Below, in pieces: positions 44,261-61,593 of a stretch of 64,000 bases of DNA (positions are counted from its first letter, which is position 1; every line of letters starts with the position of its first letter). Position numbers and translations under genes: made by a program. This stretch comes from Burkholderia savannae (lineage in GTDB: Bacteria; Pseudomonadota; Gammaproteobacteria; Burkholderiales; Burkholderiaceae). The notes beneath the pieces were generated by a model. That model was not told where the DNA came from and made no database searches. It saw nothing but the letters and a program-made list of their open reading frames with translations. The stretch covers positions 2,728,001-2,792,000 of the forward strand of contig NZ_CP013418.1 of the NCBI RefSeq assembly GCF_001524445.2, written 5' to 3'.

Positions 44261-44680
44261 ATGTCCCGTCCTGCTTTGAAGCCGCTGCCGAATCCGCCGG
44301 AGGCGACGGTCGCGCAAATGTCGGCGGCCGGCCTGCGCGCGTTCTTCAACATCGCGCGCGACTGGGAGCTGTCGACCGACGAGCAGATCGTCCTGCTGGG
44401 CTCGCCCGGCCGCTCGACGTTCTTCAAATGGAAGGCGTCGCCGCAAACCGCGCGCCTCACGCACGATACGCTCGAGCGCCTGTCGCTCGTGCTCGGCATC
44501 TACAAGGCGCTGCAGATCCTGCTGCCGCAGCCCGCCGCGGCGGACGCGTGGGTCAAGCGGCCGAACGACGCCGCGCCGTTCAACGGCAGGCGCGCGCTCG
44601 ACCGGATGCTCGCGGGGAACGTCAGCGATCTCGTCGCGGTGCGCCAATATCTCGACGCGACGCGAGGCGGATGGGCGTGA
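44261..44680 (+). CDS. Antitoxin, Xre/MbcA/ParS family
   Basis: 139 residues from ATG 44261 (MSRPALKPLPNPPEATV). An N-terminal helix-turn-helix-like part (ALRAFFNIARDWELSTDEQIVLLGSPGRSTFFKWK region) precedes the ParS/MbcA toxin-binding C-terminal domain (LGIYKALQILLPQPAAADAWVKRPNDAAPFNGRRALDRML is the typical core, ending VRQYLDATRGGW). It should neutralise the downstream RES toxin and repress the operon. The toxin ATG lies 10 bp inside its 3' end. Confidence 0.93.
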   Translation: MSRPALKPLPNPPEATVAQMSAAGLRAFFNIARDWELSTDEQIVLLGSPGRSTFFKWKASPQTARLTHDTLERLSLVLGIYKALQILLPQPAAADAWVKRPNDAAPFNGRRALDRMLAGNVSDLVAVRQYLDATRGGWA

Positions 44681-45378
44681 TCTTTCCCGAACGGCAGACG
44701 AACTGGCCCGTCGCGGCGCTCGACTGGGCACCCGCCTACCGCGTGATCCCCACGCGCTTTCCCGCGATCAATCTGTTCGACCGCGTCGCGTCGGCCGAGG
44801 ATTTCGACGCGCTGTACGCGCTCGAGGCGTTGACCAACGATCGCGTGCGTACCGAGGTGGGCGTGCTCGGTCTCGTGCCGCCCGACGAGCGGCGCTTCGG
44901 GCCGGGCTACGGGCCGATCATGGCCGCGTTCACGCACCTGAATCCGAACGGCAGCCGTTTCTCCGACGGCAGCTACGGCGTGTTTTATTGCGCGCACACG
45001 CGCAACACGGCGATTGCGGAGACGCGCTATCACGCGTCGCTGTTCCTCGCGGCGACGAAGGAGCCGCCGATGCGTCAGCAGATGCGTCTCTACACGGTGG
45101 CCGCGCACGGCGAGGTCGCCGACCTGCGCGCGTGGCGCGAGCGCGATCCGGCGTTTCTCGATCCCGCCGACTATGCAGCCGGGCAGGCGTTCGGCCGTGC
45201 GGTGCGCGAGGCGGGCGGCGCGGGCGTCGCGTATCCGTCGGTGCGGGACCCGGGAGGCGAATGTCTCGCGGCGTTCAGGACGCTGCTGCTGCGCGATTGT
45301 CACCACGCCGCGTATCTCGAGTACAACTGGAACGGCGCGGCGATCGACGCGGTGTTCGAGCTGAGTCAGATCGGCTGA
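44671..45378 (+). CDS. RES-domain toxin (NAD-depleting)
   Basis: 235 residues. The RES fold's Arg, Glu and Ser signature positions are visible: AYRVIPTRFPAINLFDR, then SDGSYGVFYCAHTRNTAIAETRYH, and the later GGAGVAYPSVRDPGGECLAAF. Known RES toxins (MbcT, RES-Xre) degrade NAD+ and stop growth. It overlaps the ParS-type antitoxin by 10 bp, the standard operon layout. It is somewhat longer than the minimal RES domain. Confidence 0.93.
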   Translation: MGVIFPERQTNWPVAALDWAPAYRVIPTRFPAINLFDRVASAEDFDALYALEALTNDRVRTEVGVLGLVPPDERRFGPGYGPIMAAFTHLNPNGSRFSDGSYGVFYCAHTRNTAIAETRYHASLFLAATKEPPMRQQMRLYTVAAHGEVADLRAWRERDPAFLDPADYAAGQAFGRAVREAGGAGVAYPSVRDPGGECLAAFRTLLLRDCHHAAYLEYNWNGAAIDAVFELSQIG

Positions 45379-49029: not shown

Positions 49030-50619
49030 ATGGCCAGACACATCGTTCAAGCAATCCAGTCTCATGCGTTCGCCACGCCGTATAAATGCGCGTTGTCCGA
49101 TTCTCGCGGCGATCTCGGCTACGCCGATCTCGACAGCTTCAGCACCCGTTTCGCGATGCGCCTGCAGGATCTGGGCTGCCGCCCGGGAGATCGCGTCGTG
49201 ATGCTCGCGAGCCGCCGCGCGTTGCTCGTCGCGGCGATCGTCGGCGTGTTCAAGGCCGGCTGCGTGCACGTGCCGCTCGATCCGCGCATGCCGACGGACC
49301 GCCTGCGATACATCCTGCACGACGTCGCGCCGGCGCTCGTGATCGCCGACGAAGATCTGACCGAAGCGCTCGAGCACGCGTTGCCGTCGGCCGCGCCGAT
49401 CCTGCCGCTGAGCGAGCTCGAGCGGCTCCTCGCCGACGCAGATTCGGCGCGGCTCGACGCGCTCGTGCAGCCGTTGCCGCTGCCGCCGTTCGACGAAACC
49501 GCGATCGCATATTGCATCTACACCTCCGGCTCGACAGGCCGCCCGAAGGGCGTGCTGATCAACCACCGCAGCATCGCGGATTTCTTCGAAGGTACGCGCG
49601 CCGTCTACGACGTCACGTCGCAATCGAGATGCGCGAGCTTTTCGCCGCTGCATTTCGACGTGTATCTGATGGACATGATGTTTCCGCTCGCGCAGGGCGC
49701 GTCGCTGTACGTGCACGACGACGTGAACGCGCCTGACTTGCTGTTCGACGCGATCCGCGCGCACGACGTCACGCATTTCTCCGCGTGGGGCATGATGCTC
49801 GGCCTGATCGCGCAGGCGGACGCGTTCGAAGCCGCGCCGCTGCCGCACCTGAAGACGATCCTTACAGGCACCGACGTGCCCGACGTGAAGACGATCCAGC
49901 GCTGGCTGAAGAAAAACGCGGGCGTGCAGGTGATCAACGCGTACGGTCCGACCGAGGCCACATGCGCGGCGGTCGCGCACGTGATCCGAGAGGTCGAGCC
50001 CGAGCGGCGCGCGCTCTATCCGATCGGCAAGCCGCTCGAGCACGTGAGGGCGTTGCTCGCCGACGAGCGCGGCGAGCGGATCACGGCGCCGGGTGTGCCG
50101 GGCGAGCTGATGATCGGCGGCACGCAGGTCATGCAGGGCTATTGGAACTTGCCCGAGGAGACGGCGGCGCGGCTCGTTCGCATGAACGGCGTGCCGTTTT
50201 ATCGAACGGGCGACGTCTGCACGTATCTCGCCGACGGCAGCCTGTATTACATGGGCCGCAAGGATAACGAAGTGAAGATCGGCGGTTACCGGATTCATCT
50301 GAGCGAAATCCAGCGGGTCGTCAACGGCGTGCCGCACGTGCATGGATCGGAGGTCGTGCTGCTCGAATCGCGCTACGGCGAGACGCTGCTTGCCGCGGGC
50401 GTGCTGCTCGAGCGCGGCGCGTCGCTCGACGCCGATTCGAAGGTCGACGAAATCAGGCGGCGCCTCGCGGCGGAGCTTCCCGCCTACATGGTGCCTCGCC
50501 ACGTCATGGTTCTCGAGCAGTTTCCGCAGTTGTCATCGGGAAAGACGGATCGCAAAGCGCTTCTGTCGATATTGCAACACCGCGTCAATGAAAGTAACCA
50601 GGAGGAAGTGAATCCATGA
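49030..50619 (+). CDS. Stand-alone NRPS adenylation enzyme (amino-acid-activating)
   Basis: 529 residues from ATG 49030, with AGAGGA at good spacing; a longer upstream frame starts without such a site. Adenylation motifs: A3 YTSGSTGRPKG (164-174), A4 FD (F209-D210), A5 NAYGPTE (303-309), A7 YRTGD, A8 GRKDNEVKIGGYRI and A10 GKTDRKAL (Lys505). Asp210 is the usual ligand of the amino acid's amine, so the substrate should be an alpha-amino acid. Lined up on PheA, the pocket residues read D V M S L G A C A K, a code I cannot assign. There are no condensation or carrier domains; the carrier is the next gene. Confidence 0.93.
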   Translation: MARHIVQAIQSHAFATPYKCALSDSRGDLGYADLDSFSTRFAMRLQDLGCRPGDRVVMLASRRALLVAAIVGVFKAGCVHVPLDPRMPTDRLRYILHDVAPALVIADEDLTEALEHALPSAAPILPLSELERLLADADSARLDALVQPLPLPPFDETAIAYCIYTSGSTGRPKGVLINHRSIADFFEGTRAVYDVTSQSRCASFSPLHFDVYLMDMMFPLAQGASLYVHDDVNAPDLLFDAIRAHDVTHFSAWGMMLGLIAQADAFEAAPLPHLKTILTGTDVPDVKTIQRWLKKNAGVQVINAYGPTEATCAAVAHVIREVEPERRALYPIGKPLEHVRALLADERGERITAPGVPGELMIGGTQVMQGYWNLPEETAARLVRMNGVPFYRTGDVCTYLADGSLYYMGRKDNEVKIGGYRIHLSEIQRVVNGVPHVHGSEVVLLESRYGETLLAAGVLLERGASLDADSKVDEIRRRLAAELPAYMVPRHVMVLEQFPQLSSGKTDRKALLSILQHRVNESNQEEVNP

Positions 50620-50876
50620 AGACCGAAACGATGTTGATTCAGATTCTGGAGAGCGTGATCGGCGTCAAGAAGGTGACGGGCGATACCCGTTTTCTGGATA
50701 TCGGCGGCAATTCGCTCAATCTCGTCGAAGTGCTGAAGCAGATCAAGGCGAAAACGGGCGTCGCGCCGTCGCCGAGGCTGTTTTTCGACAAGACGCGCTC
50801 GACGGTGGCGGCGTTGAGCGGCGAAATCGACGCACTGCGCGAGCTCAGCGGCGCCGAGGCCCCGGTCGCGGGCTGA
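50616..50876 (+). CDS. Stand-alone peptidyl/acyl carrier protein
   Basis: 86 residues. The phosphopantetheine site is DIGGNSLNLVE (Ser33) and the four-helix layout is normal. The start overlaps the adenylation gene's stop (ATGA). It should carry the activated amino acid as a thioester to the halogenase, as the carrier part of SyrB1 or CytC2 does. Its own activating phosphopantetheinyl transferase is not in the window. Confidence 0.94.
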   Translation: MKTETMLIQILESVIGVKKVTGDTRFLDIGGNSLNLVEVLKQIKAKTGVAPSPRLFFDKTRSTVAALSGEIDALRELSGAEAPVAG

Positions 50877-50970
50877 TTCCGGAGGGCGTTTCACGAGCCG
50901 CGAAAGCGGCGGCCGCGACAAGCGGATTTTTCAAGACATGGCTCTTTACGCCATATTTAGGAGAACTGAG

Positions 50971-51876
50971 ATGCAAAAGCGTTTTCACATGTCGGAAGCC
51001 GAAAAGAAATCTTTTTACGAGAACGGCTTCGCCGGCCCGTTCACGCTGTACGAACCGGAGGAGATGACCCGCGTCTGGAACGAAGTGCGGATGGACCTGC
51101 TCGATGCGACGAAGGCGGCGTTCCCGAACAGCCGGCTCAACTATGACCGTCATCTCGACATGCCCGATCTGAACCAGATCATTAGTCATCCGAAGATCGT
51201 CGATCGGATCTCGAGCATCCTCGGCCCGGACGTGCTGAGCTGGCGAACCGAGTGGTTTCCGAAATACCCGGGCGACGAAGGTACCGACTGGCACCAGGCC
51301 GAGAGCTTCGTGGAGTTCGAAGGCACCGAGAAGCTCGAGCCGACGGCGGCGGAAGAAGGGCGGCCGTGGGAGCTGACCGCGTGGATCGCGATGAGCGAGG
51401 CGACGAAGGAGAACGGCTGCCTGAAGCTGATGCCGGGCAGCCACCGCACCTGGTTCTTCGACGAGAAGCGCAACATCCCGTTCGAGCCGGAGAACTTCAA
51501 CAAGCGCGTGCTCGACGACGGCCAGAAATCAGGCTTCTACGGCTACGACTACGAGAAGCTGAAGCTCGATCCGAGCTGGAAGCCGGACGAGTCGCGCGCG
51601 GTGCACATGGAAGTGAAGCCGGGCCAGTTCTTCATCTTCACGTCGCGCTGCATGCATGGCTCGAATCCGAACACGAGCAAGGATTCGGTGCGTTTCGGCT
51701 GGGCGACGCGCTTCGTGCCGACGCACGTGAAGGTGTATTCGGGTCAGGAGTCGTTCCACCACTTCGGCGAAGTGCTGCCGCTCGACCGCTACTCGACGGT
51801 GTTGGTGGCGGGCGAGGACCGCTATGGCCATAACCGCGTGACGAAGCCGCTCGCCGCAGTTGCGGCGATCGCGTAA
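50971..51876 (+). CDS. SyrB2-like non-heme Fe(II)/2-oxoglutarate halogenase
   Basis: 301 residues from ATG 50971 with AGGAGA seven bases upstream; a longer frame from 50938 lacks this. The core FPKYPGDEGTDWHQAESF is nearly the same as in SyrB2 and CytC3 as I recall them. The iron triad is His108-x-Ala110 with His229. Ala replaces the Asp/Glu of hydroxylases, leaving a site for chloride. Arg247 (ATRFVP) should bind 2-oxoglutarate. Lengths agree (SyrB2 is 310). Such enzymes chlorinate unactivated carbons of amino acids tethered to a carrier protein, and the carrier gene is immediately upstream. Chlorination is inferred but the motif is diagnostic. Confidence 0.93.
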   Translation: MQKRFHMSEAEKKSFYENGFAGPFTLYEPEEMTRVWNEVRMDLLDATKAAFPNSRLNYDRHLDMPDLNQIISHPKIVDRISSILGPDVLSWRTEWFPKYPGDEGTDWHQAESFVEFEGTEKLEPTAAEEGRPWELTAWIAMSEATKENGCLKLMPGSHRTWFFDEKRNIPFEPENFNKRVLDDGQKSGFYGYDYEKLKLDPSWKPDESRAVHMEVKPGQFFIFTSRCMHGSNPNTSKDSVRFGWATRFVPTHVKVYSGQESFHHFGEVLPLDRYSTVLVAGEDRYGHNRVTKPLAAVAAIA

Positions 51877-51894
51877 GCGAAGGAAGGCGCCGAC

Positions 51895-52677
51895 ATGAAT
51901 GCATGCGAGGCCCGCTGGTTCCTGTTCGGCGCCGACGAACGGAAACCCGATGTACGAATCCGGCTGTTCTGCTTTCACTACGCGGGCAGCGGCGGCTCAA
52001 TCTTCAGGAACTGGGTCGAGTCGCTGCCGGACGGCGTCGAGCTTGTCGCGGTGCAGATGCCCGGCCGCGAGAACCGGCTGAACGAGCCGCTGTTGCACTC
52101 GATGGACGAAGTCGCGTCTCCGCTCGTCGACGCGCTCGCTCCGCTGCTCGACCGGCCGTTTGCGTTCTTCGGGCACAGCACGGGCGCGCTGATCGGTTTC
52201 GAGGTCGCGCGGGTACTGCGCGCTCGCGGATATCCGCAGCCGAGGCTTCTGATCGCGTCCGCGCAGAACGCGCCCGACGTGAAGCCGGAAGTGATTCGGC
52301 ATCGGTTGTCGGATGCCGAGTTCGTCGAAGTGCTGCGCGGCTGCAACGGCACGCCCGACGCGATTCTGCAGGACCCGGCGCTGCTCGAGCTGCTGCTGCC
52401 GCGGATTCGCGCGGACGGCGCCGTGTTCGAGACGTACCGCTACGAGCCACAAGCGCCGCTCGATTGCCGGATCGTCGTCTTTCACGGCGTTCACGACGGC
52501 CTCGTGCGCGAAGACGGGCTCGCACGCTGGGCGAGCGAGACGCGGCAAAGCTTCGCACGCTACCGGTTTGCCGGCGACCACTTCTTCATTCACGACGAAG
52601 AGGCGTCGGTACTCGACCACATCAACCGCGAGCTCGAGCCGCTCTTGAGCGATGCGAGCTCCACTCTAATCGGATGA
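51895..52677 (+). CDS. Type II thioesterase, first copy
   Basis: 260 residues, alpha/beta hydrolase. Nucleophile elbow GHSTG (Ser95), LFCFHYAGSGGSIFRNW near 24-40, and catalytic His in GDHFFIHDE. The GrsT/TEII family usually has GHSMG; here Thr replaces Met. It probably releases the processed amino acid from the carrier or clears mis-loaded carriers. It starts 18 bp after the halogenase stop, with AAGGAAGG upstream. Confidence 0.92.
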   Translation: MNACEARWFLFGADERKPDVRIRLFCFHYAGSGGSIFRNWVESLPDGVELVAVQMPGRENRLNEPLLHSMDEVASPLVDALAPLLDRPFAFFGHSTGALIGFEVARVLRARGYPQPRLLIASAQNAPDVKPEVIRHRLSDAEFVEVLRGCNGTPDAILQDPALLELLLPRIRADGAVFETYRYEPQAPLDCRIVVFHGVHDGLVREDGLARWASETRQSFARYRFAGDHFFIHDEEASVLDHINRELEPLLSDASSTLIG

Positions 52678-52684
52678 CAGACAA

Positions 52685-53368
52685 ATGGCGCAGTGGAATT
52701 CAGATGACGAGCTGTTCGCGCTGATGCGCGCCGAGCTCTCGACCTGCCCCGTCAGCGACGTGATGGAGCAGCTCGGGTTCGCGTACCCGATGCTGCCGCC
52801 GGAGATCCGCCCGCTGCGGCGGGACATGGTGATGATCGGCCGCGCGATGCCCGTGCAGGACGAGCCGCCCGTGCCGCACGGCGGTCTCAAGCGTTACGAC
52901 GCGAAACCGTTTGGACTGCTGTTCGAATCGGTCGAGGCGTTGCGTCCGGGCGAGGTCTACGTCGCGAGCGGCGGCCCGACGGCTGTCGCGCGGCTCGGCG
53001 ATCTGCTTGTCACGCGCGCGCGCAATCTCGGTGCGGCGGGTGTCGTGTTGAACGCGCACGTGCGCGACGCGAACGCGATTGCCGATCTGAACCTGCCGGC
53101 GTTCGCGCACGGCACGTACGCATACGGGCTGCAGGGGCGCCACAACGTCGTCGACTATCGCTGTTCGATCACCGTTGGCCACGTGCGAATCCGGCCGGGC
53201 GACCTGATCTTCGGCGACGGTGACGGCGTCTGCGTGATTCCGCGCGAAGCGGAGCAGGAAGTGATCAACCGCGCGATCGCGAAGAACCGGCTCGAACGCA
53301 AGGTTCGCGACGCGATCGTCGAAGGCCGCAGCGTCGTCGACGCATTCAATCAATACAACGTCATGTGA
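52685..53368 (+). CDS. RraA-like aldolase/decarboxylase family protein
   Basis: 227 residues. The RraA/4-hydroxy-4-methyl-2-oxoglutarate aldolase fold is seen in LSTCPVSDVMEQLGFAYPMLPPEIRPL, GDLLVTRARNLGAAGVVLNAHVRDAN (Gly105-Asp106 ... Arg127-Asp128, the metal and pyruvate site) and GDLIFGDGDGVCVIPRE. Members with this site cleave or form pyruvate-derived hydroxy acids or decarboxylate oxaloacetate. It is seven bases after the thioesterase. Together with the second aldolase it points to pyruvate chemistry, but which step it does is unknown. Confidence 0.9.
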   Translation: MAQWNSDDELFALMRAELSTCPVSDVMEQLGFAYPMLPPEIRPLRRDMVMIGRAMPVQDEPPVPHGGLKRYDAKPFGLLFESVEALRPGEVYVASGGPTAVARLGDLLVTRARNLGAAGVVLNAHVRDANAIADLNLPAFAHGTYAYGLQGRHNVVDYRCSITVGHVRIRPGDLIFGDGDGVCVIPREAEQEVINRAIAKNRLERKVRDAIVEGRSVVDAFNQYNVM

Positions 53369-53382
53369 GGAGCGCAACAGCG

Positions 53383-54327
53383 ATGAAAGCGAGCTACGTG
53401 TGGAAGAACGGCGAACTGGTGCCGTGGGAGCGTGCGCAGGTGCACGTGATGAGCCATGCGCTGCATTACGGAACCAGCGTGTTCGAGGGCGTGCGCGCCT
53501 ACGAGATCGGCGAGAAGGCGGCGATTCTCTGCGGCCGCGAGCACTTCGAGCGCTTGCTGTTCAGCTGCAAGGTCGCGCGGATTCCATCGCCGATGAGCGT
53601 CGGGCAGTGGATGGAGGCGACGGTCGAGACGCTGCGCGCGAACGGTCAGCGCAGCGCGTACATCCGGCCGCTCGTCTATCGCGGCGCGGGCGAGTCGCTC
53701 GGGCTCGACGCGCGGCAATGCCCGGCCGAAGCGCTGCTCGTGACGATGCCGTGGGGCGCGTATCTCGGCGACGAGGCGCTGGAGCAGGGTGTCGACGTGC
53801 AGGTCAGCAGCTGGCGGCGCAACGGCGCGGGCGCGGCGAGCACGCTCGCGAAGATCGGCGGCCAGTACGTCAACGGCCAGGCGATCGTGATGGAGGCGCA
53901 CGAGAACGGGATGAGCGAGGGCATCGCGCTCGACGCGAACGGTTTCGTGAGCGAAGGCAGCGGCGAGAACGTGTTCCTCGTCTACAAGAACGAGATCTTC
54001 ACGCCGTCGATCGGCAGCAGCATCCTGAGCGGCATCACGCGCAATTGCGTGATTCGGATCGCGCGCGACCTCGGCTACACCGTGACCGAGACGAGCATCC
54101 CGCGCGAGATGCTTTATCTCGCCGACGAGATCTTCTTCACCGGCACCGCGGTCGAGATCTGTCCGGTGCGCTCGGTCGACAGGATGTTCGTCGGCGGCGG
54201 CAAGCGCGGCCCCGTGACGAAGGCGATCCAGGATCAGTACTTCGGCATCGTGCGCGGCACGCACGCGGACAAATGGAACTGGCTTACGCCCGTGCCGGTG
54301 CCGGCGCGCGACGGAGCGCGGTCATGA
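53383..54327 (+). CDS. Class IV (branched-chain type) aminotransferase
   Basis: 314 residues from ATG 53383 with GAGGAG upstream. IlvE-type motifs: LHYGTSVFEGVRAY (28-40), IRPLVYRG, the PLP lysine in TLAKIGGQYVNGQ (Lys157) and EGSGENVFLVYKNEI. It transfers an amino group between Glu and a branched or aliphatic 2-oxo acid. In this operon it most likely aminates the 2-oxo acid made by the aldolase. Housekeeping branched-chain synthesis is possible but the position inside the operon argues against it. Confidence 0.93.
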   Translation: MKASYVWKNGELVPWERAQVHVMSHALHYGTSVFEGVRAYEIGEKAAILCGREHFERLLFSCKVARIPSPMSVGQWMEATVETLRANGQRSAYIRPLVYRGAGESLGLDARQCPAEALLVTMPWGAYLGDEALEQGVDVQVSSWRRNGAGAASTLAKIGGQYVNGQAIVMEAHENGMSEGIALDANGFVSEGSGENVFLVYKNEIFTPSIGSSILSGITRNCVIRIARDLGYTVTETSIPREMLYLADEIFFTGTAVEICPVRSVDRMFVGGGKRGPVTKAIQDQYFGIVRGTHADKWNWLTPVPVPARDGARS

Positions 54328-55166
54328 GCGCGCGCGAATCGGCGGCCGCTTCGCCGTGGCTGATCGTCCACGCGGCGCGGGATGCGCGCGTACGGCTCTT
54401 CTGCTTTCACTACGCGGGCGCGACCGCGTCGATCTTTCGGACGTGGCCGCGCGGCTTGCCCGACTGGGTCGAAGTGGTCGCGGTGCAACTGCCCGGCCGC
54501 GAGTATCGCCTGGGCGAGCCGCTGATCGAGGACGCCGAGCCGATCGTCGCGGCGCTCGCGGAGGTCGTGCCGCCGCTGCTCGATCTGCCGTACGCGTTCT
54601 TCGGCCACAGCATGGGCGCGCTGATCGCGTTCGACCTCGCACGCCTGCTGCGCGCGCGCGGCTTCGCCAAGCCTTCGCTGTTCGTCGCGTCGGGCCGCAG
54701 CGCGCCGCGTTTTCGCTGGCGGGACGCGGGCATTCAGACGCTGCCCGACGATGCGTTCATCGCCGCGGTGCGCGACTACAACGGCACGCCCGACGCGCTG
54801 ATCGCCGATCCGGCGCTGCGCGACCTCTGGCTGCCCCGGCTGCGGGCGGATCTGACGATCTCCGCGACGTACCGATACGTCGAAGCGCCGCCGCTCGATT
54901 GCCCGCTGCTCGTGCTGCACGGCTCGAACGACGGCCTCGTGAGCGACGCCGGGCTGTCGGGCTGGCTCGCCGAGACGAGCGGAGCCGCGCGCTACGTCGG
55001 TTTTTCGGGCGGCCATTTCTTCATGCACGGCGAAGAAGAGGGCGTGCTCGGCGAAATCGGCCGCGAGCTGGAGCGTGTGCTCGCACGCGAAGCGGCGGGT
55101 GTGCAAAGCGGCATGCGCGGTTCGGCGGCGCGCATGCGTCATTTGACGGAGGAGAGCGGCATATGA
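54324..55166 (+). CDS. Type II thioesterase, second copy
   Basis: 280 residues, start overlapping the aminotransferase stop (ATGA). It has the classical GHSMG (Ser96), LFCFHYAGATASIFRTW and the catalytic His in GGHFFMHGE. It resembles the thioesterase at 51895 throughout, so the pair arose by duplication. One may release the product and the other may edit. A longer C-terminal tail (ARMRHLTEESGI) is specific to this copy. Confidence 0.92.
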   Translation: MSARESAAASPWLIVHAARDARVRLFCFHYAGATASIFRTWPRGLPDWVEVVAVQLPGREYRLGEPLIEDAEPIVAALAEVVPPLLDLPYAFFGHSMGALIAFDLARLLRARGFAKPSLFVASGRSAPRFRWRDAGIQTLPDDAFIAAVRDYNGTPDALIADPALRDLWLPRLRADLTISATYRYVEAPPLDCPLLVLHGSNDGLVSDAGLSGWLAETSGAARYVGFSGGHFFMHGEEEGVLGEIGRELERVLAREAAGVQSGMRGSAARMRHLTEESGI

Positions 55167-56056
55167 AGAACAAATCATCGCGCACGCGCGTGGCGATCCT
55201 CGGGTCGGGCAGCATCGGGCTCGATCTGATGTTCAAAGTGAAGGCATCCGAACAATTCGATCTGAGGTTCGTCGTCGGGCGTAATGCGCAGAGCGACGGA
55301 CTCAAGCTCGCGCGCAGCTGCAACGTCGAGACGTCGAGCGACGGTCTCGACTTCCTGAAGGAGAACGAGGGGGCGTACGACCTCGTGTTCGACGCGACGT
55401 CGGCCGCCGCGCACAAAATCAACAATCGCTTCTTCTCGGACGCGGGCAAGTTCGTGATCGACCTGACGCCCGCGAAGCTCGGCCGCCTGTGCGTGCCGTG
55501 CATCAATCTGGACGACATGGGCGCCGAGCAGAACGTGAACCTCATCACCTGCGGCGGGCAGGCGAGCCTGCCGCTTGCGTACGCACTGAAGCAGGCGGTC
55601 GACGAGATCGAATACCTGGAGGTGGTGTCGGCGATCGCGTCGCGCAGCGCCGGCATCGCGACGCGCGAGAACATCGACGAATACATGACGACGACCGAAT
55701 ACGCGCTCGCGAAATTCAGCGGTGCGAAGAAGACGAAGGCGATCCTCAACATCAATCCCGCCGAGCCCGGCGTGCGGATGCAGACCACGCTCTATGCGTA
55801 CGCGCGCTATCGCGATTTCGATCGGGTGCGTGCGTGCGTCGCCGGCATGGTCGAGAAGGTTCGCGAATACGTGCCCGGCTATCGGCTTGTCGTCGAACCG
55901 CTCGAAAGCCAGGGCAGGATCACGATCGGCCTGACGGTGCGCGGGCGCGGCGACTACCTGCCCGAGTACGCGGGCAATCTGGACATCATCAATTGCGCGG
56001 CGCTCGCGGTCGCCTCGCATCGACATGCAACCGCCAGACAAGGAGCCACACAATGA
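55163..56056 (+). CDS. Acetaldehyde dehydrogenase (acylating), MhpF/DmpF-like
   Basis: 297 residues, start overlapping the thioesterase stop. GSGSIGLDLMFKV (14-26) binds NAD. The catalytic cysteine is in NLITCGGQASLPL (Cys130), as in DmpF. It interconverts acyl-CoA and aldehyde; in catabolic operons it removes acetaldehyde produced by the partner aldolase. No aromatic ring-cleavage genes are nearby. Here it may run in reverse, supplying aldehyde from acyl-CoA for aldol addition. It overlaps the aldolase gene, as the two normally form a channelling complex. Confidence 0.94.
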   Translation: MKNKSSRTRVAILGSGSIGLDLMFKVKASEQFDLRFVVGRNAQSDGLKLARSCNVETSSDGLDFLKENEGAYDLVFDATSAAAHKINNRFFSDAGKFVIDLTPAKLGRLCVPCINLDDMGAEQNVNLITCGGQASLPLAYALKQAVDEIEYLEVVSAIASRSAGIATRENIDEYMTTTEYALAKFSGAKKTKAILNINPAEPGVRMQTTLYAYARYRDFDRVRACVAGMVEKVREYVPGYRLVVEPLESQGRITIGLTVRGRGDYLPEYAGNLDIINCAALAVASHRHATARQGATQ

Positions 56057-57096
56057 TACTGATCAGCGATGCGACCTTGCGCGACGGCAATCACGCGATT
56101 CGCCATCAACTGAGCGCTGCGCAGATTCATGCGTATGCGCGCGCGGCCGACGAGGCCGGCATCGACGTCGTCGAAGTCGGGCACGGCAACGGTCTCGGCG
56201 GTTCGTCGTGCCTGCTCGGACAGACGCCCATCGGCGATCGCCTGATGCTCGAGACCGCGCGCGCCGCGCTGCGCACGAGCCGGCTCGGCGTGCATTTCAT
56301 TCCCGGGCTCGGCAAGGCGGCGGACATCGCGCTCGCGCTCGAGATCGGCGTCGACGTCGTGCGCGTCGCGACGCATTGCACCGAAGCGAACGTGTCCGCG
56401 CGCTTCATCGAGCAGACGCGACACGCGGGCCGCACAGCGTTCGGTGTGCTGATGATGTCGCACATGGCGCCGCCCGACGTGCTGCTCGCGCAAGCGAGGC
56501 TGATGGAGCGTTACGGCGCGCAGGCGGTCGTGCTGATGGACAGCGCCGGCTACTCGACGCCGTCGCTCGTGCGCGCGAAGGTCGAGCGCCTCGTCGACGG
56601 CCTCGATATCGACGTCGGCTTTCATGCGCACAACAATCTCGGGCTCGCGGTCGCGAACAGCCTCGTCGCGCTCGAGGCAGGCGCGCGCATCGTCGATGCC
56701 TGCGTGAAAGGCTTCGGCGCGGGCGCGGGCAACACGCAGCTCGAGACGCTCGTCGCCGCGATGGAACGCGAAGGGCACGGCGCGCGAACGACGTTCGAGC
56801 GCGTGATGACGCTCGCGCGCAGCACCGAGGCTTTCCTGAATCCGAAGACGCCGCACATCCAGCCGGCGAACATCGCGAGCGGCCTGTACGGCCTCTTTTC
56901 CGGCTATGTGCCGCACATCCAGAAGGCGGCGCAGGAGTTCGGCGTCAACGAGTTCGATCTGTACAAGCGGCTCGCGGAACGCAAGCTCGTCGCCGGCCAG
57001 GAGGACATCATCATCGAGGAGGCGAGCCGTCTCGCGCGCGAGCGGGACGTGCAGCGCGCGAGCGACGGCGTGCGGATTCGCGAGCTGTCCGCGTGA
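56053..57096 (+). CDS. 4-hydroxy-2-oxovalerate aldolase-like enzyme (MhpE/DmpG family)
   Basis: 347 residues. The start DATLRDGNHAIRHQ (Arg10, Asp11, His14) matches the DmpG active site, and HAHNN (His191, His193) gives the metal ligands. The C-terminal part (IASGLYGLFSGYVPHIQKAAQEFGVNEFDLYKRLAERKLVAGQEDIII) follows the DmpG layout for contact with the dehydrogenase. It catalyses 4-hydroxy-2-oxovalerate to and from pyruvate plus acetaldehyde. The setting with an aminotransferase and amino-acid-activating enzymes suggests synthesis rather than breakdown. Confidence 0.94.
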   Translation: MILISDATLRDGNHAIRHQLSAAQIHAYARAADEAGIDVVEVGHGNGLGGSSCLLGQTPIGDRLMLETARAALRTSRLGVHFIPGLGKAADIALALEIGVDVVRVATHCTEANVSARFIEQTRHAGRTAFGVLMMSHMAPPDVLLAQARLMERYGAQAVVLMDSAGYSTPSLVRAKVERLVDGLDIDVGFHAHNNLGLAVANSLVALEAGARIVDACVKGFGAGAGNTQLETLVAAMEREGHGARTTFERVMTLARSTEAFLNPKTPHIQPANIASGLYGLFSGYVPHIQKAAQEFGVNEFDLYKRLAERKLVAGQEDIIIEEASRLARERDVQRASDGVRIRELSA

Positions 57097-57135
57097 GCGC
57101 GGACGCATTTCACACGATCGAACGAGGAGGGAATC

Positions 57136-57552
57136 GTGACAGGTTTGAGCGAACGAGGTTTTGGTGCATGGGATCGAGTCGAGCGCGAAGTGCTGACCGA
57201 TCGGATCGAGCGTCAGGTCGTCTCGGGCGACGCGCTGACGCTGGCGAAGCTGTTCCTGAAGAAAGGCGCGTTCGTCGGAACGCATTCGCATCCGAACGAG
57301 CAGTTCACCTACATCCTCGAAGGACGCCTGCTGTTCCGTTACGGCGAGCGCCTCGAGCACGAGGTCGAGGTGGGGCCCGGCGAGATCCTGCATCTTCCGG
57401 CGAACGTGCCGCACAACGCGTTGTGTCTCGAGGACGCGGTCGATCTCGACGTGTTTACGCCGCCGCGGGCCGACTGGCTCGCGCCGGACGGCAATCGCTA
57501 CTTCGCCGGCGCACCGGCCGCGGCTTCGTCCGCGCCGGCGGCCGGCCGATGA
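57136..57552 (+). CDS. Cupin-domain protein
   Basis: 138 residues, GTG start with AGGAGG seven bases upstream. Single cupin domain: metal-binding THSHPNEQFTYILEG (His50, His52, Glu55) and LPANVPHNA (His93). It is a small metal-dependent enzyme or binding protein. In the operon it could carry out a finishing step such as dehalogenation or isomerisation, or sense the product. The Ala/Pro-rich tail is low-complexity. Confidence 0.88.
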   Translation: MTGLSERGFGAWDRVEREVLTDRIERQVVSGDALTLAKLFLKKGAFVGTHSHPNEQFTYILEGRLLFRYGERLEHEVEVGPGEILHLPANVPHNALCLEDAVDLDVFTPPRADWLAPDGNRYFAGAPAAASSAPAAGR

Positions 57553-57589
57553 ACGACCACCATCGAAGCCGACGAACCGAGGAGGCGCC

Positions 57590-58192
57590 GTGCTCATCCA
57601 GGATGCATTGCTCAAGATGTCGTTATACGTGTCGCTCGTGCTGATCGTGCCGGGGCCGACGAACACGCTGCTGCTGTCGTCGGGCCTGAAGGCCGGCCTG
57701 CGCGGCACCTGGCACCTCGTGATCGCGGAGGCGCTGGGCTATGTCGTCGCGATCTCGCTATGGGGGTTCTTCCTGCTGTCGGTGGCGGCGAGCCGGCCCT
57801 GGCTCTTCGGCGCGATCAAGCTGCTGAGCGCCGCGTACATCCTGTGGCTCGCGGTCAAGATGTGGACGAAGAGCCGCGCGCTGCACGAGCTGACCGCGGG
57901 GCCGATCAGTTTCGCGGATCTGTTCGTCGCGACGCTGATGAACCCGAAGGCACTGCTGTTTGCGAGCACGATGTTTCCGCTAGAAGCGTTCCGGTCGCTC
58001 AGCTACTTCGGATGGGCGGTCGTCGTGTTCCTGATCGTGCTCGCGCCGATCGGCGTCGGCTGGTCGAGCCTGGGCGGGCTGCTGACGTCGCAGCGCTCGT
58101 GGGCCGCGCATACGTCGACGTTCATGCGCTGCGCGTCGCTCGTGCTCGCGACGTTTTCTGGATCGCTCGCGTATTCGGTGTTGGGGCGCTGA
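57590..58192 (+). CDS. LysE/RhtB family amino-acid exporter
   Basis: 200 residues, GTG start. LysE/RhtB landmarks: IVPGPTNTLLLSSGLKAGLRG near the N-terminus, LSAAYILWLAVKMW, and ATLMNPKALLFASTMFPL. Six membrane helices are expected. It exports small amino acids and their derivatives. As the last gene of the operon it indicates that the product is a free amino acid or close relative, not a peptide. A strong hairpin follows. Confidence 0.92.
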   Translation: MLIQDALLKMSLYVSLVLIVPGPTNTLLLSSGLKAGLRGTWHLVIAEALGYVVAISLWGFFLLSVAASRPWLFGAIKLLSAAYILWLAVKMWTKSRALHELTAGPISFADLFVATLMNPKALLFASTMFPLEAFRSLSYFGWAVVVFLIVLAPIGVGWSSLGGLLTSQRSWAAHTSTFMRCASLVLATFSGSLAYSVLGR

Positions 58193-60051: not shown

Positions 60052-60906
60052 TTAGTGGTCTGCCTGGTGCTGCGAGCGCCGGCCGCGGACCGCGGAAATC
60101 CACGAACCCGGCGTGATGCCGTAAGTGCTCTTGAAGTGCCGCGACATATGGCTTTGATCGGAGAAGCCCGCGTCGGTGGACGAGGTCGACAGCGATTCGC
60201 CTTCCATCAACAGTTTGCGCACGAGATTGAGCTGCCGTTGAGTGCGAAAGCGGCTCGGGCTCGTGCCGAACAGCGTGCGGAACTGGCGGGCGATTGTCCA
60301 GCGGTCGAGCCCCGAGGCGTGTTCGAGCGCGTCCATCGAGATCGCCGTGTGCGGGCGGGACGCGATGATATCGCGTATGCGCGTCAATTCGGCCACGGCG
60401 AGCGTGCCGGTCTTGGGCGCGCCGCGGTTCGCGGCGGCGGCCGTCAGCAGGTTCGCGACGGCGACGGCGATGTCGAAGCGGGACAGGTTGTCGATTTCCT
60501 CGTCCAGGTTCCAGACGCCGGCTGCGAGTCCTTCGGCGACGGCGGGCGCCTGAACGATCGGTGAGCGGACGAACGGAAGCATGCGTCCGCCAAGGGCTTC
60601 CTGGACGAGCGCGGGGTCAACGTAGACGATCCGGTAGCCGAAGCCTTCGTCGGTTCCCGCGCGGCCGTCGTGCAGTTCGTCCGGGTGAAGGATATGGCAC
60701 TGCCCCGGCAGGCAGTGGTGGGTTTCGCCGAGATAGCGGAAGGTCTGCACGCCCGAGAGCGTGATGCCGATCGCGTACGTGTCGTGACGATGGGGCGTGA
60801 ACGCGTGATCGAGGAAGTGCGCCTCTGCGCGCTCGATGCCCGTGGCGCCGGAGCCGATCCGAATGTGGTTCCTGTCGGGCGCGGTGTCGCGTGCACAATC
60901 GTTCAA
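60052..60906 (-). CDS. AraC family regulator, divergent from a LysE exporter
   Basis: 284 residues if TTG at 60906-60904 is the start; this codon has GGAGG five bases upstream, better than any ATG. The cupin sensor (FTPHRHDTYAIGITLSGVQTFRYLG, CHILHPDELHDG) precedes two HTH motifs (SMDALEHASGLDRWTIARQFRTLFGTSPSRFRTQRQLN and STDAGFSDQSHMSRHFKSTYGITPGSW). AraC members of this type (ArgP-like context) often control the divergent amino-acid exporter, here 61 bp away. Confidence 0.9.
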   Translation of the reverse strand: MNDCARDTAPDRNHIRIGSGATGIERAEAHFLDHAFTPHRHDTYAIGITLSGVQTFRYLGETHHCLPGQCHILHPDELHDGRAGTDEGFGYRIVYVDPALVQEALGGRMLPFVRSPIVQAPAVAEGLAAGVWNLDEEIDNLSRFDIAVAVANLLTAAAANRGAPKTGTLAVAELTRIRDIIASRPHTAISMDALEHASGLDRWTIARQFRTLFGTSPSRFRTQRQLNLVRKLLMEGESLSTSSTDAGFSDQSHMSRHFKSTYGITPGSWISAVRGRRSQHQADH

Positions 60907-60966
60907 GACAGCCTCCGTGGCGCTTCCATAAGCTACCTGTTCAAAAAATGGTGCATTGGAGCCTCG

Positions 60967-61593
60967 ATGGTAAACCAAGTCGATCTAGTTTCGGATATGT
61001 TGCGCTCACTTCTGGCCCTGCTCCTTGCGGCGACCGTGGTGATGGGCAGCCCCGGGCCGTCGACGGTCAGTGCGACGGCGATGGGCGCGTCCTACGGGGT
61101 GCGCAGGTCGCTCAAATATGCTTGGGGCCTCATTGCCGGCACGGTCGCCGTGCTGCTTCTCGTGTCGACGGGCGTGACGGCTTTCGTGATGTCGATGCCG
61201 AACGGCGCGAGGATGCTCAACATCATTTCCGCTGTCTACATTCTCTATCTTGCGTACAAGATTGCGACTGCGCCACCGCTCGACGCGCGCAAAGGAGACG
61301 TCTCGTCTCCCGCGTTCAAGGGCGGCTTCCTTTTGGCCGTCGCCAATCCGAAGGCGTACATCGCGATCGGCGCGGTGTTTGCAGGGACGACGCTCGTTGC
61401 CAGCAACTATGGCCTGGATGCTGCCGCCAAAATTGCCCTGCTGAGCGTGATGATCATCGTTATCCATCTCGGCTGGCTGCTGGCAGGCGTGTCGTTGTCC
61501 CGTTTCCTGCACGATCCGGTTGCGTCCCGCATCATCAATGTTTCCTTGGCGGCGATATTGGTGCTTGTTTCGCTGATTGCGCTATTCGAATGA
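60967..61593 (+). CDS. LysE/RhtB family exporter (second in window)
   Basis: 208 residues from ATG 60967 with GGAG upstream; ATG 60997 is an alternative. Motifs: MGSPGPSTVSATAMGASYGVRRSLKYAWG, ISAVYILYLAYKIATAPP and LLAVANPKAYIAIGAVFAG. Six helices are expected. Probably exports an amino acid under control of the divergent AraC protein. It is only distantly similar to the exporter in the halogenase operon. Confidence 0.92.
   Translation: MVNQVDLVSDMLRSLLALLLAATVVMGSPGPSTVSATAMGASYGVRRSLKYAWGLIAGTVAVLLLVSTGVTAFVMSMPNGARMLNIISAVYILYLAYKIATAPPLDARKGDVSSPAFKGGFLLAVANPKAYIAIGAVFAGTTLVASNYGLDAAAKIALLSVMIIVIHLGWLLAGVSLSRFLHDPVASRIINVSLAAILVLVSLIALFE

What the first reader, a model, noticed from the sequence alone, without database searches (positions are those of the whole stretch)
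49030..58192. Ten-gene operon predicted to make and export a chlorinated (or chlorine-derived) small amino acid
The operon joins a free-standing adenylation enzyme, carrier protein, SyrB2-like halogenase and two thioesterases with an aminotransferase, acylating aldehyde dehydrogenase, two pyruvate-type aldolases, a cupin and a LysE exporter. There are no condensation domains, so the product should be a single modified amino acid rather than a peptide. I do not know a named cluster with this exact set. Overlaps at 50616, 54324, 55163 and 56053 show tight coupling.
Basis: partly seen in the sequence, partly recalled or inferred. Interest (0 to 1): 0.92.

Follow-up and report, generated by a model that had tools for sequence, protein, structure and literature searches.

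The report
Leucine-type halogenase amino acid operon
An eleven-gene Burkholderia operon most likely loads leucine or a close look-alike onto a carrier, chlorinates it and exports a small modified amino acid; sister clusters in other bacteria carry altered leucine enzymes that look like self-protection, which hints at a leucine-mimicking antimetabolite, still unidentified in the papers searched.

Summary
Relatives sharpen the reading. The halogenase groups with a barbamide-type Moorena pair, apart from an 86-row set. The adenylation code DVMSLGACA is shared by 11 of 12 sibling loci in Burkholderia, Ramlibacter and alphaproteobacteria, so all should load the same amino acid. In 4 of 12 the DmpF/DmpG pair is replaced by an isopropylmalate synthase without its leucine-sensing domain. 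In 3 of 12 a leucyl-tRNA synthetase with altered pocket and editing site lies beside the adenylation gene. Best explanation: carrier-bound leucine (or a near-isostere) is chlorinated, released, reworked and exported as a leucine antimetabolite. Loading, chlorination and product are inferred. The window's own form lacks the synthase and the tRNA synthetase, and the substrate of its diverged DmpF/DmpG pair is unknown. A 2025 omics paper lists a stationary-phase-induced 'barbamide' cluster in B. thailandensis that is very probably this operon; ten searches found no product named. New variant of a known kind.

The parts
49030..50619 (+). free-standing adenylation enzyme (A), BarD-like; specificity residues DVMSLGACA plus the A10 lysine
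   Evidence: TIGR01733 367.7 bits; same code in 11 of 12 sibling loci
50616..50876 (+). free-standing carrier protein (T), GGNSL phosphopantetheine site
   Evidence: PF00550 38.1 bits; ATGA overlap with A
50938..51876 (+). non-heme Fe/2-oxoglutarate halogenase (Hal) with HQA motif, in one clade with a barbamide-like Moorena pair
   Evidence: TIGR01762 435.8 bits; tree; signature columns; HQA, second His and Arg
51895..52677 (+). type II thioesterase 1
   Evidence: PF00975 164.1 bits
52685..53368 (+). RraA-like protein (class II pyruvate aldolase/decarboxylase family), present in 12 of 12 sibling loci
   Evidence: PF03737 104.2 bits; Arg-Asp and Gly-Asp residues kept
53383..54327 (+). branched-chain aminotransferase, IlvE type (possible GTG start at 53365)
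   Evidence: TIGR01122 376.4 bits; best solved relative 1a3g, branched-chain aminotransferase, E 1.3e-96
54324..55166 (+). type II thioesterase 2
   Evidence: PF00975 149.1 bits; ATGA overlap
55163..56056 (+). DmpF-like acylating aldehyde dehydrogenase, catalytic Cys kept, diverged subfamily
   Evidence: TIGR03215 397.5 bits
56053..57096 (+). DmpG-like 4-hydroxy-2-oxo acid aldolase with communication domain; stretches recalled as acceptor side are rewritten
   Evidence: TIGR03217 334.8 bits, PF07836 76 bits
57136..57552 (+). small single-domain cupin
   Evidence: PF07883 48 bits; solved relatives weak, best E 8.8e-10
57590..58192 (+). LysE-family exporter
   Evidence: PF01810 41.7 bits
58269..59300 (-). 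LuxR-type protein with autoinducer-binding domain; a relative lies near the operon in 7 of 8 DmpFG-type loci, window included
   Evidence: PF03472 34.1 bits, no helix-turn-helix hit at E<=1e-4

Best explanation
The operon makes a small free leucine mimic on a one-module, condensation-free line. Step 1 (inferred): A activates leucine, or a close isostere, and loads it on T. Step 2 (inferred from the halogenase clade): Hal replaces an unactivated C-H of the bound side chain by C-Cl. Step 3 (inferred): one of the two type II thioesterases releases the amino acid. Step 4 (weakest): the IlvE-type aminotransferase interconverts amino acid and 2-oxo acid, and the RraA-like protein, cupin and DmpF/DmpG-like pair either rework the halogenated 2-oxo acid or clear a hydrolysed by-product. 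Step 5 (inferred): LysE exports the product. Expression is probably growth-phase- and LuxR-controlled. The product most likely acts as a leucine antimetabolite.
For: Hal lies with a tandem Moorena pair in a 16-row set (SH-aLRT 96), apart from an 86-row set. The Moorena locus reads T-Hal-Hal-TE-A followed by an A-T-KS-AT-DH protein, the layout recalled for barbamide barA-B1-B2-C-D-E. Of 38 clade-signature columns both Moorena copies share 27 (8 of 109 rows set aside). BarB1/BarB2 chlorinate carrier-bound leucine in vitro (passages of PMC8407142). A code DVMSLGACA in 11 of 12 siblings, DVMSLGACG in L061; Moorena DAMALGGCA; of 96 halogenase-linked A domains 42 read DFW[NS][IV]GMVH, 19 DAFWLGGTF and 8 DAFFLGVTF. 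4 of 12 siblings hold an isopropylmalate-synthase-like gene with only HMGL-like and HCS_D2 domains. 3 of 12 hold a LeuRS gene beside A: the second Asp of the HDxRD motif is lost in 3 of 3 and kept in 10 of 10 canonical copies, TTRxDT and leucine-pocket stretches are changed, the C-terminal domain is missing, HMGH and KMSKS stay. The aminotransferase is IlvE-like. Stationary-phase induction is reported for BTH_II0563/0564.
Against: The window has neither the LeuA-like nor the extra LeuRS gene; its genome shows one LeuRS over cut-off, and one LeuA-type sibling (L061's genome) also shows only one, so the leucine-mimic argument is carried over from three or four siblings. DVMSLGACA is not a leucine code that I recall from textbooks and differs from the Moorena code at three of nine positions, each time by a bulkier residue, which could mean a smaller substrate. 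DmpF/DmpG have no evident role in a leucine route. The LeuRS copies could be biosynthetic rather than protective. The Moorena locus was named barbamide-like by order only. No metabolite, enzyme assay or phenotype is in hand.
Confidence: 0.55

Rival explanations
1. The substrate is a straight-chain C5 amino acid (norvaline or 4-hydroxynorvaline). LeuA-like enzymes elongate 2-oxobutyrate, or DmpFG condenses acetaldehyde with pyruvate to 4-hydroxy-2-oxovalerate, BCAT aminates it, and Hal gives a chloronorvaline. 4-Chloronorvaline is leucine with one methyl replaced by chlorine and is recalled (not seen here) as a natural leucine antagonist from Streptomyces.
For: In the slot after TE2, 8 of 12 siblings have DmpF/DmpG and 4 have a LeuA-like gene; the 4 lack DmpF, as if each supplied a skeleton. 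The A code is bulkier than the Moorena one at three positions.
Against: The A code is the same in LeuA and DmpFG types, which would make different skeletons unless both yield the same acid. Hal is 66-68% identical to the Moorena pair and about 50% or less to the halogenases outside the wider clade. DmpG is changed at stretches recalled as acceptor side, arguing against plain acetaldehyde.
Confidence: 0.2
2. Chlorination is cryptic: the chloride is a leaving group and the final product has no chlorine (dehydroleucine, 4-methylproline, a cyclopropyl amino acid or a lactone). This can be combined with either substrate.
For: Extra enzymes accompany the module: RraA-like in 12 of 12 siblings, BCAT in 10 of 12, cupin in 8 of 12; halogenation leading to cyclopropane or alkene formation (jamaicamide, curacin, coronatine, kutzneride) is listed in PMC8407142 (passages).
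Against: None of the Pfam families found in the operon is one that I know as a chloride-displacing cyclase; nothing observed requires loss of chlorine.
Confidence: 0.3
3. The chlorinated amino acid is a building block handed to an NRPS elsewhere, as in barbamide, rather than a free product.
For: The nearest characterised relative feeds a PKS/NRPS; the genome has 54 AMP-binding matches.
Against: No other AMP-binding match within about 279 kb upstream, and none downstream, on that contig; LysE is in 8 of 8 DmpFG-type loci. The acidobacterial sibling L061 does have further AMP-binding genes next door, so transfer is possible there.
Confidence: 0.12
4. The LeuRS genes in alphaproteobacterial siblings are biosynthetic (aminoacyl-tRNA or aminoacyl-adenylate donors), not immunity genes, so they say nothing about toxicity.
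For: Loss of the C-terminal domain and editing residues and a changed amino-acid pocket; they sit beside the A gene.
Against: HMGH and KMSKS are intact; immune LeuRS AgnB2 is a precedent and likewise lacks the leucine-specific insertion (passages of PMC5059758; compare); LeuA-like genes lacking the feedback domain fit a leucine-mimic product.
Confidence: 0.3

Closest known systems
Barbamide starter module BarA-BarB1-BarB2-BarC-BarD (Moorena/Lyngbya; trichloroleucine)
   Same: T, Hal, one TE and A match a Moorena locus of this layout (51%, 66 and 68%, 44%, 49% identity); 27 of 38 halogenase signature columns shared.
   Different: One halogenase instead of two; no KS/AT extension; adds RraA-like, BCAT, a DmpF/DmpG-like pair, a second TE, cupin and LysE; product presumably free.
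CytC1-CytC2-CytC3 (armentomycin, dichloro-aminobutyrate) of Streptomyces
   Same: Stand-alone A, T and halogenase giving a small chlorinated amino acid (arrangement recalled; CytC3 substrate in passages of PMC8407142); CytC3 is the best PDB sequence match of Hal (3gja, E 3.6e-87).
   Different: CytC3 itself was not in the tree; no aldolases, aminotransferase or LeuRS siblings are recalled for that pathway.
SyrB1/SyrB2 (syringomycin, chlorothreonine)
   Same: Same halogenase family (2fct, E 2.4e-80).
   Different: Threonine-type codes DFW[NS][IV]GMVH (assignment recalled) sit with halogenases of other clades.
DmpF-DmpG acetaldehyde dehydrogenase/4-hydroxy-2-oxovalerate aldolase complex (1nvm, 4jn6)
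   Same: Both subunits, communication domain, catalytic Cys and the RDG and HAH motifs.
   Different: 67 of 160 canonical-invariant DmpG columns (one a gap column) differ in 8 of 8 operon copies, including LLLPG to HFIPG and VYSSF to LFSGY.
AgnB2, immune LeuRS of agrocin 84
   Same: Extra LeuRS in a biosynthetic locus, without the leucine-specific insertion.
   Different: Only in alphaproteobacterial siblings; changes hit the leucine pocket and editing site, and the C-terminal domain is missing; no immunity test.

Membership tests
SyrB2-type carrier-dependent non-heme iron halogenases | Family score, HxA in place of HxD/E, second His and 2-oxoglutarate Arg | tested here: met
   TIGR01762 435.8 over 226.3; HQA, His and Arg
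SyrB2-type carrier-dependent non-heme iron halogenases | Chlorinates an aminoacyl carrier in vitro | not testable with these tools
   no assay
Barbamide-type (leucine) A-T-Hal-TE module | Halogenase in the BarB clade | tested here: met
   16-row set with the Moorena pair, SH-aLRT 96, quick tree with long-branch warnings; 27 of 38 signature columns. The Moorena locus is called barbamide-like by gene order (recalled), not by comparison with the published cluster.
Barbamide-type (leucine) A-T-Hal-TE module | A domain with the same specificity code | tested here: inconclusive
   DVMSLGACA against DAMALGGCA: 6 of 9 positions equal
Barbamide pathway | Tandem halogenases and downstream PKS/NRPS | tested here: not met
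   one halogenase, no KS/AT/C domain in the operon
DmpFG (meta-cleavage) complex | Both subunits over NCBIfam cut-offs with catalytic Cys and RDG/HAH motifs | tested here: met
DmpFG (meta-cleavage) complex | Residues invariant in canonical copies, acceptor side included | tested here: not met
   67 of 160 invariant columns differ in 8 of 8 copies (5 canonical copies from 3 genomes)
Immune aminoacyl-tRNA synthetase cluster | Second LeuRS in the cluster with an intact copy elsewhere | tested here: inconclusive
   not in the window's genome (one LeuRS over cut-off); in 3 siblings beside A, canonical copy found elsewhere in 2 of those 3 genomes

The most novel reading that the evidence does not exclude
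Aldolase-type enolate chemistry on a chlorinated 2-oxo acid: chlorination of leucine is cryptic, BCAT makes the 5-chloro-4-methyl-2-oxo acid, the RraA-like protein forms its C3 enolate as pyruvate aldolases do, and the enolate displaces chloride to close a ring (2-methylcyclopropyl glyoxylate), which BCAT returns to a cyclopropylglycine. This would be a new ring-forming route and a new use of the RraA/HMG-aldolase fold, with relatives of the module spread across phyla.
Probability: 0.08. Interest if true: 0.88.

Novelty: new variant of a known kind. Interest (0 to 1): 0.62.

Why it matters
If right, a pathway family found in Burkholderia, Ramlibacter, alphaproteobacteria and an acidobacterium makes a leucine-mimicking antimetabolite by carrier-bound C-H chlorination without any peptide assembly. 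It would give a short, testable route to chlorinated or chlorine-derived leucine analogues, a product for an operon that is very probably among the most induced in stationary-phase B. thailandensis, and another natural system, beside agrocin 84, in which a spare LeuRS may protect a producer. The diverged DmpF/DmpG pair and the RraA-like protein pose an open substrate question for well-studied folds.

Tried and rejected
Threonine/SyrB2 reading: not favoured, given the A code and the halogenase tree. Peptide product: not favoured, no condensation domain and no other AMP-binding match within about 279 kb on that contig. An extra LeuRS as immunity gene in the window's own genome: searched, none over cut-off besides the main one; diverged LeuRS-like frames in G017, G015, G028, G326 and G329 were not followed, and the two of them that entered the alignment (G326_C1, G329_C49) were counted in neither group; both keep an Asp at the editing position. 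Cluster-type RraA outside this context: in a phylum draw of 398 genomes 4 matched at E<=1e-50, the window's own and three at 43-44%; in plasmids all 913 records with a match were below 60%, best listed 46.9%. A plasmid or phage home: all plasmid matches below 60% (Hal 47 records, best 49.7%; A 26 records), no phage match. L067 (Breoghania MAG) was left out of the sibling count: only T and a halogenase that aligns in several overlapping pieces, and no A at E<=1e-80 in its genome. L064 and L066 were not counted as siblings (PKS/NRPS context). A first LeuRS alignment held antisense frames and was redone. Gene calling by length alone picked antisense ORFs and was replaced by a GC-position score, which still misses some genes. 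The, 74 set of 110 loci holds some loci twice (L049-L051 repeat L052-L054; some unnamed and named records are the same genome). Structure prediction and fold search were not used. The species was not established; records close to the window may be left out of the named collections, as the tools state.
Full report
Observation. The window lies in a genome of 7.43 Mb (window = C2:2728001-2792000). The genus is Burkholderia by inference: genome G059 of the same genus group carries a halogenase contig of the same length as, and a halogenase identical to, the named B. stagnalis LMG 28156 record. The species was not established. ORF listing and Pfam/NCBIfam scans confirm eleven genes in one direction: A 49030-50619, T 50616-50876, Hal 50938-51876, TE1 51895-52677, RraA-like 52685-53368, IlvE-type BCAT 53383-54327, TE2 54324-55166, DmpF-like 55163-56056, DmpG-like 56053-57096, cupin 57136-57552 and LysE 57590-58192.

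Conservation. Of 65 genomes of the genus searched, the window's included, 24 have any halogenase match at E<=0.001; 5 of the 64 others have an 89-94% identical one, and all 5 regions hold all eleven genes (L029-L033). A scan of the named genome collection found 227 relatives and returned the best 80 loci. Two Ramlibacter MAGs carry the operon, L065 with all eleven genes and L059 without BCAT. A LuxR-type gene lies near the operon in 7 of 8 DmpFG-type loci, window included; none was seen within the 16 kb of L030.

A second form of the cluster. Breoghania (L060), an alphaproteobacterial MAG (L062), a Rhodobacter MAG (L063) and an acidobacterial MAG (L061) carry T, Hal, RraA and TE2 (TE1 in three, BCAT in three) but no DmpF. 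In the slot after TE2 they have an isopropylmalate-synthase-like gene of 416-424 aa. All four show HMGL-like plus HCS_D2 domains only, so the C-terminal leucine-sensing domain (recalled) is missing; the two scanned with NCBIfam score over the cut-off of a 2-isopropylmalate synthase model (588.0 and 583.8 against 532). I count 12 siblings: 8 with DmpF/DmpG (window, L029-L033, L059, L065) and 4 with the LeuA-like gene. The 8 were not searched for a LeuA-like gene outside the operon. L060, L062 and L063 add an FMN-dependent monooxygenase, L061 and L062 an acetyltransferase domain.

Leucyl-tRNA synthetase. In L060, L062 and L063 a LeuRS gene lies directly beside the A gene: 46, 118 and 52 bp apart by the match coordinates (matches may stop short of gene ends). 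None of the other nine siblings has one beside A. A canonical LeuRS was found elsewhere in two of these three genomes, not in that of L062, a MAG. Against ten canonical copies, the three cluster copies keep HMGH and KMSKS, lose the second Asp of HDxRD (Ala, Ser, Ala; kept in 10 of 10), change TTRxDT (kept in 10 of 10), change stretches recalled as leucine pocket (for example EHAILH to ENILVA or ENITVA) and lack the C-terminal domain. They also lack the insertion before KMSKS that 9 of the 10 canonical copies have. The immune LeuRS AgnB2 of agrocin 84 lacks this leucine-specific domain too, but was reported to show no substantial differences in residues that touch Leu-AMS (passages of PMC5059758). 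The present copies do differ there, which would fit exclusion of an amino-acid analogue rather than of an adenylate analogue. That is inference.

Substrate. The halogenase tree (108 rows, quick method, SH-aLRT only, with long-branch warnings for L066 among others) puts the window with the siblings, L066, L067 and a tandem Moorena pair in a 16-row set (96); a 19-row set (98) adds three loci from two other genera of the family; 86 rows lie on the other side (99). The Moorena locus reads T-Hal-Hal-TE-A followed by an A-T-KS-AT-DH protein, the layout recalled for barbamide. Of 38 columns invariant in the 12 siblings and rare in 87 other halogenases, 27 are shared by both Moorena copies (8 rows of the wider clade or with HQV were set aside). 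BarB1/BarB2 trichlorinate carrier-bound leucine in vitro (passages of PMC8407142), and the barbamide A domain is said to use leucine, valine and trichloroleucine (second-hand, passage of PMC10235377). The nine code positions read DVMSLGACA in 11 of 12 siblings and DVMSLGACG in L061; Moorena reads DAMALGGCA. Of 96 halogenase-linked A domains compared, 42 read DFW[NS][IV]GMVH and 19 DAFWLGGTF. Because the LeuA and DmpFG types share the code, they should load the same acid. The three differences from Moorena are all to bulkier residues, which leaves room for a smaller acid such as norvaline.

Tailoring genes. RraA-like genes were found in 14 of 110 halogenase loci (some loci twice): the 11 siblings other than the window, two loci (L052, L053) of the 57-58% group and L124; BCAT-like genes in 13 of 110. 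In the window RraA and its siblings the Arg-Asp pair and a Gly-Asp are kept; L052, L053 and L124 keep Arg-Asp but not the Gly-Asp. The DmpG copies of the eight DmpFG-type loci, compared with five canonical copies from three genomes, keep 84 of 160 canonical-invariant columns in all eight and differ in all eight at 67 (one of them a gap at the N terminus), including LLLPG to HFIPG and VYSSF to LFSGY. The DmpF copies keep the catalytic Cys but change stretches such as NPAEPPLIMRDT to NPAEPGIQMQTT. So the pair is a separate subfamily; what aldehyde it handles is not known.

Literature. PMC12322963 (passages) lists BTH_II0562-0574 of B. thailandensis as homologous to barbamide enzymes, with BTH_II0564 'BarB2' up 7.2 log2 in mRNA and 2.29 log2 in protein and BTH_II0563 up 7.1 log2 in mRNA in stationary phase, and BTH_II0542-0552 as cepacian genes. 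In the window a UDP-glucose-dehydrogenase-family gene and a glycosyltransferase lie upstream at 29.5-40.8 kb, so the same region is very probable; I did not compare letters. Ten text searches of the open-licence library listed no paper that, in what I read, names a product; most subscription papers are not covered, and only passages of the papers cited were read.

Judgement. Shown by sequence: the genes, their families, the conserved operon, the halogenase clade, the shared A code, the LeuA-like gene in place of DmpF/DmpG in four siblings, the altered LeuRS copies in three. Inferred: leucine-type loading, chlorination, release, export, leucine-mimic action. Open: the role of RraA, DmpF/DmpG and cupin, and whether chlorine stays. 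Against my reading stand the absence of the LeuA-like and extra LeuRS genes from the window's own form and of the extra LeuRS from L061, the unfamiliar A code, and the lack of any role for DmpF/DmpG on leucine.

Noticed in passing
window 60052-61593: A second LysE-family exporter (+, about 60964-61593) stands divergently to an AraC-family regulator (60052-60978, -), about 2 kb from the operon.
   Followed up: no
L052-L054: Three genomes of two other genera in the family carry a cousin cluster: BCAT-like gene, A (code DVLLWGCNN) and a 57-58% identical halogenase in all three, RraA-like in L052 and L053; in L052 also a KAS III-like gene and an EamA exporter.
   Followed up: partly
L124: A Pyrinomonadaceae contig pairs a distant halogenase with a truncated HMGL-type gene, BCAT-like, enolase-superfamily and RraA-like genes: a possible independent occurrence of the same module.
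   Followed up: partly
L057, L047, L055: Three halogenase-like proteins (Nostoc plasmid and two Burkholderiaceae genomes) read HQV instead of HQA at the chloride site and form a separate long branch.
   Followed up: no
G017:C3 1700483-1702564; G015:C4 2378780-2381164; G028:C1 2398488-2400731; G329:C49 23556-25622: Diverged LeuRS-like frames of 724-900 aa in four genomes that carry the operon, away from it.
   Followed up: no
window 44428-45378: RES-domain protein (PF08808, 119.9 bits), a domain recalled as toxin-antitoxin type.
   Followed up: no
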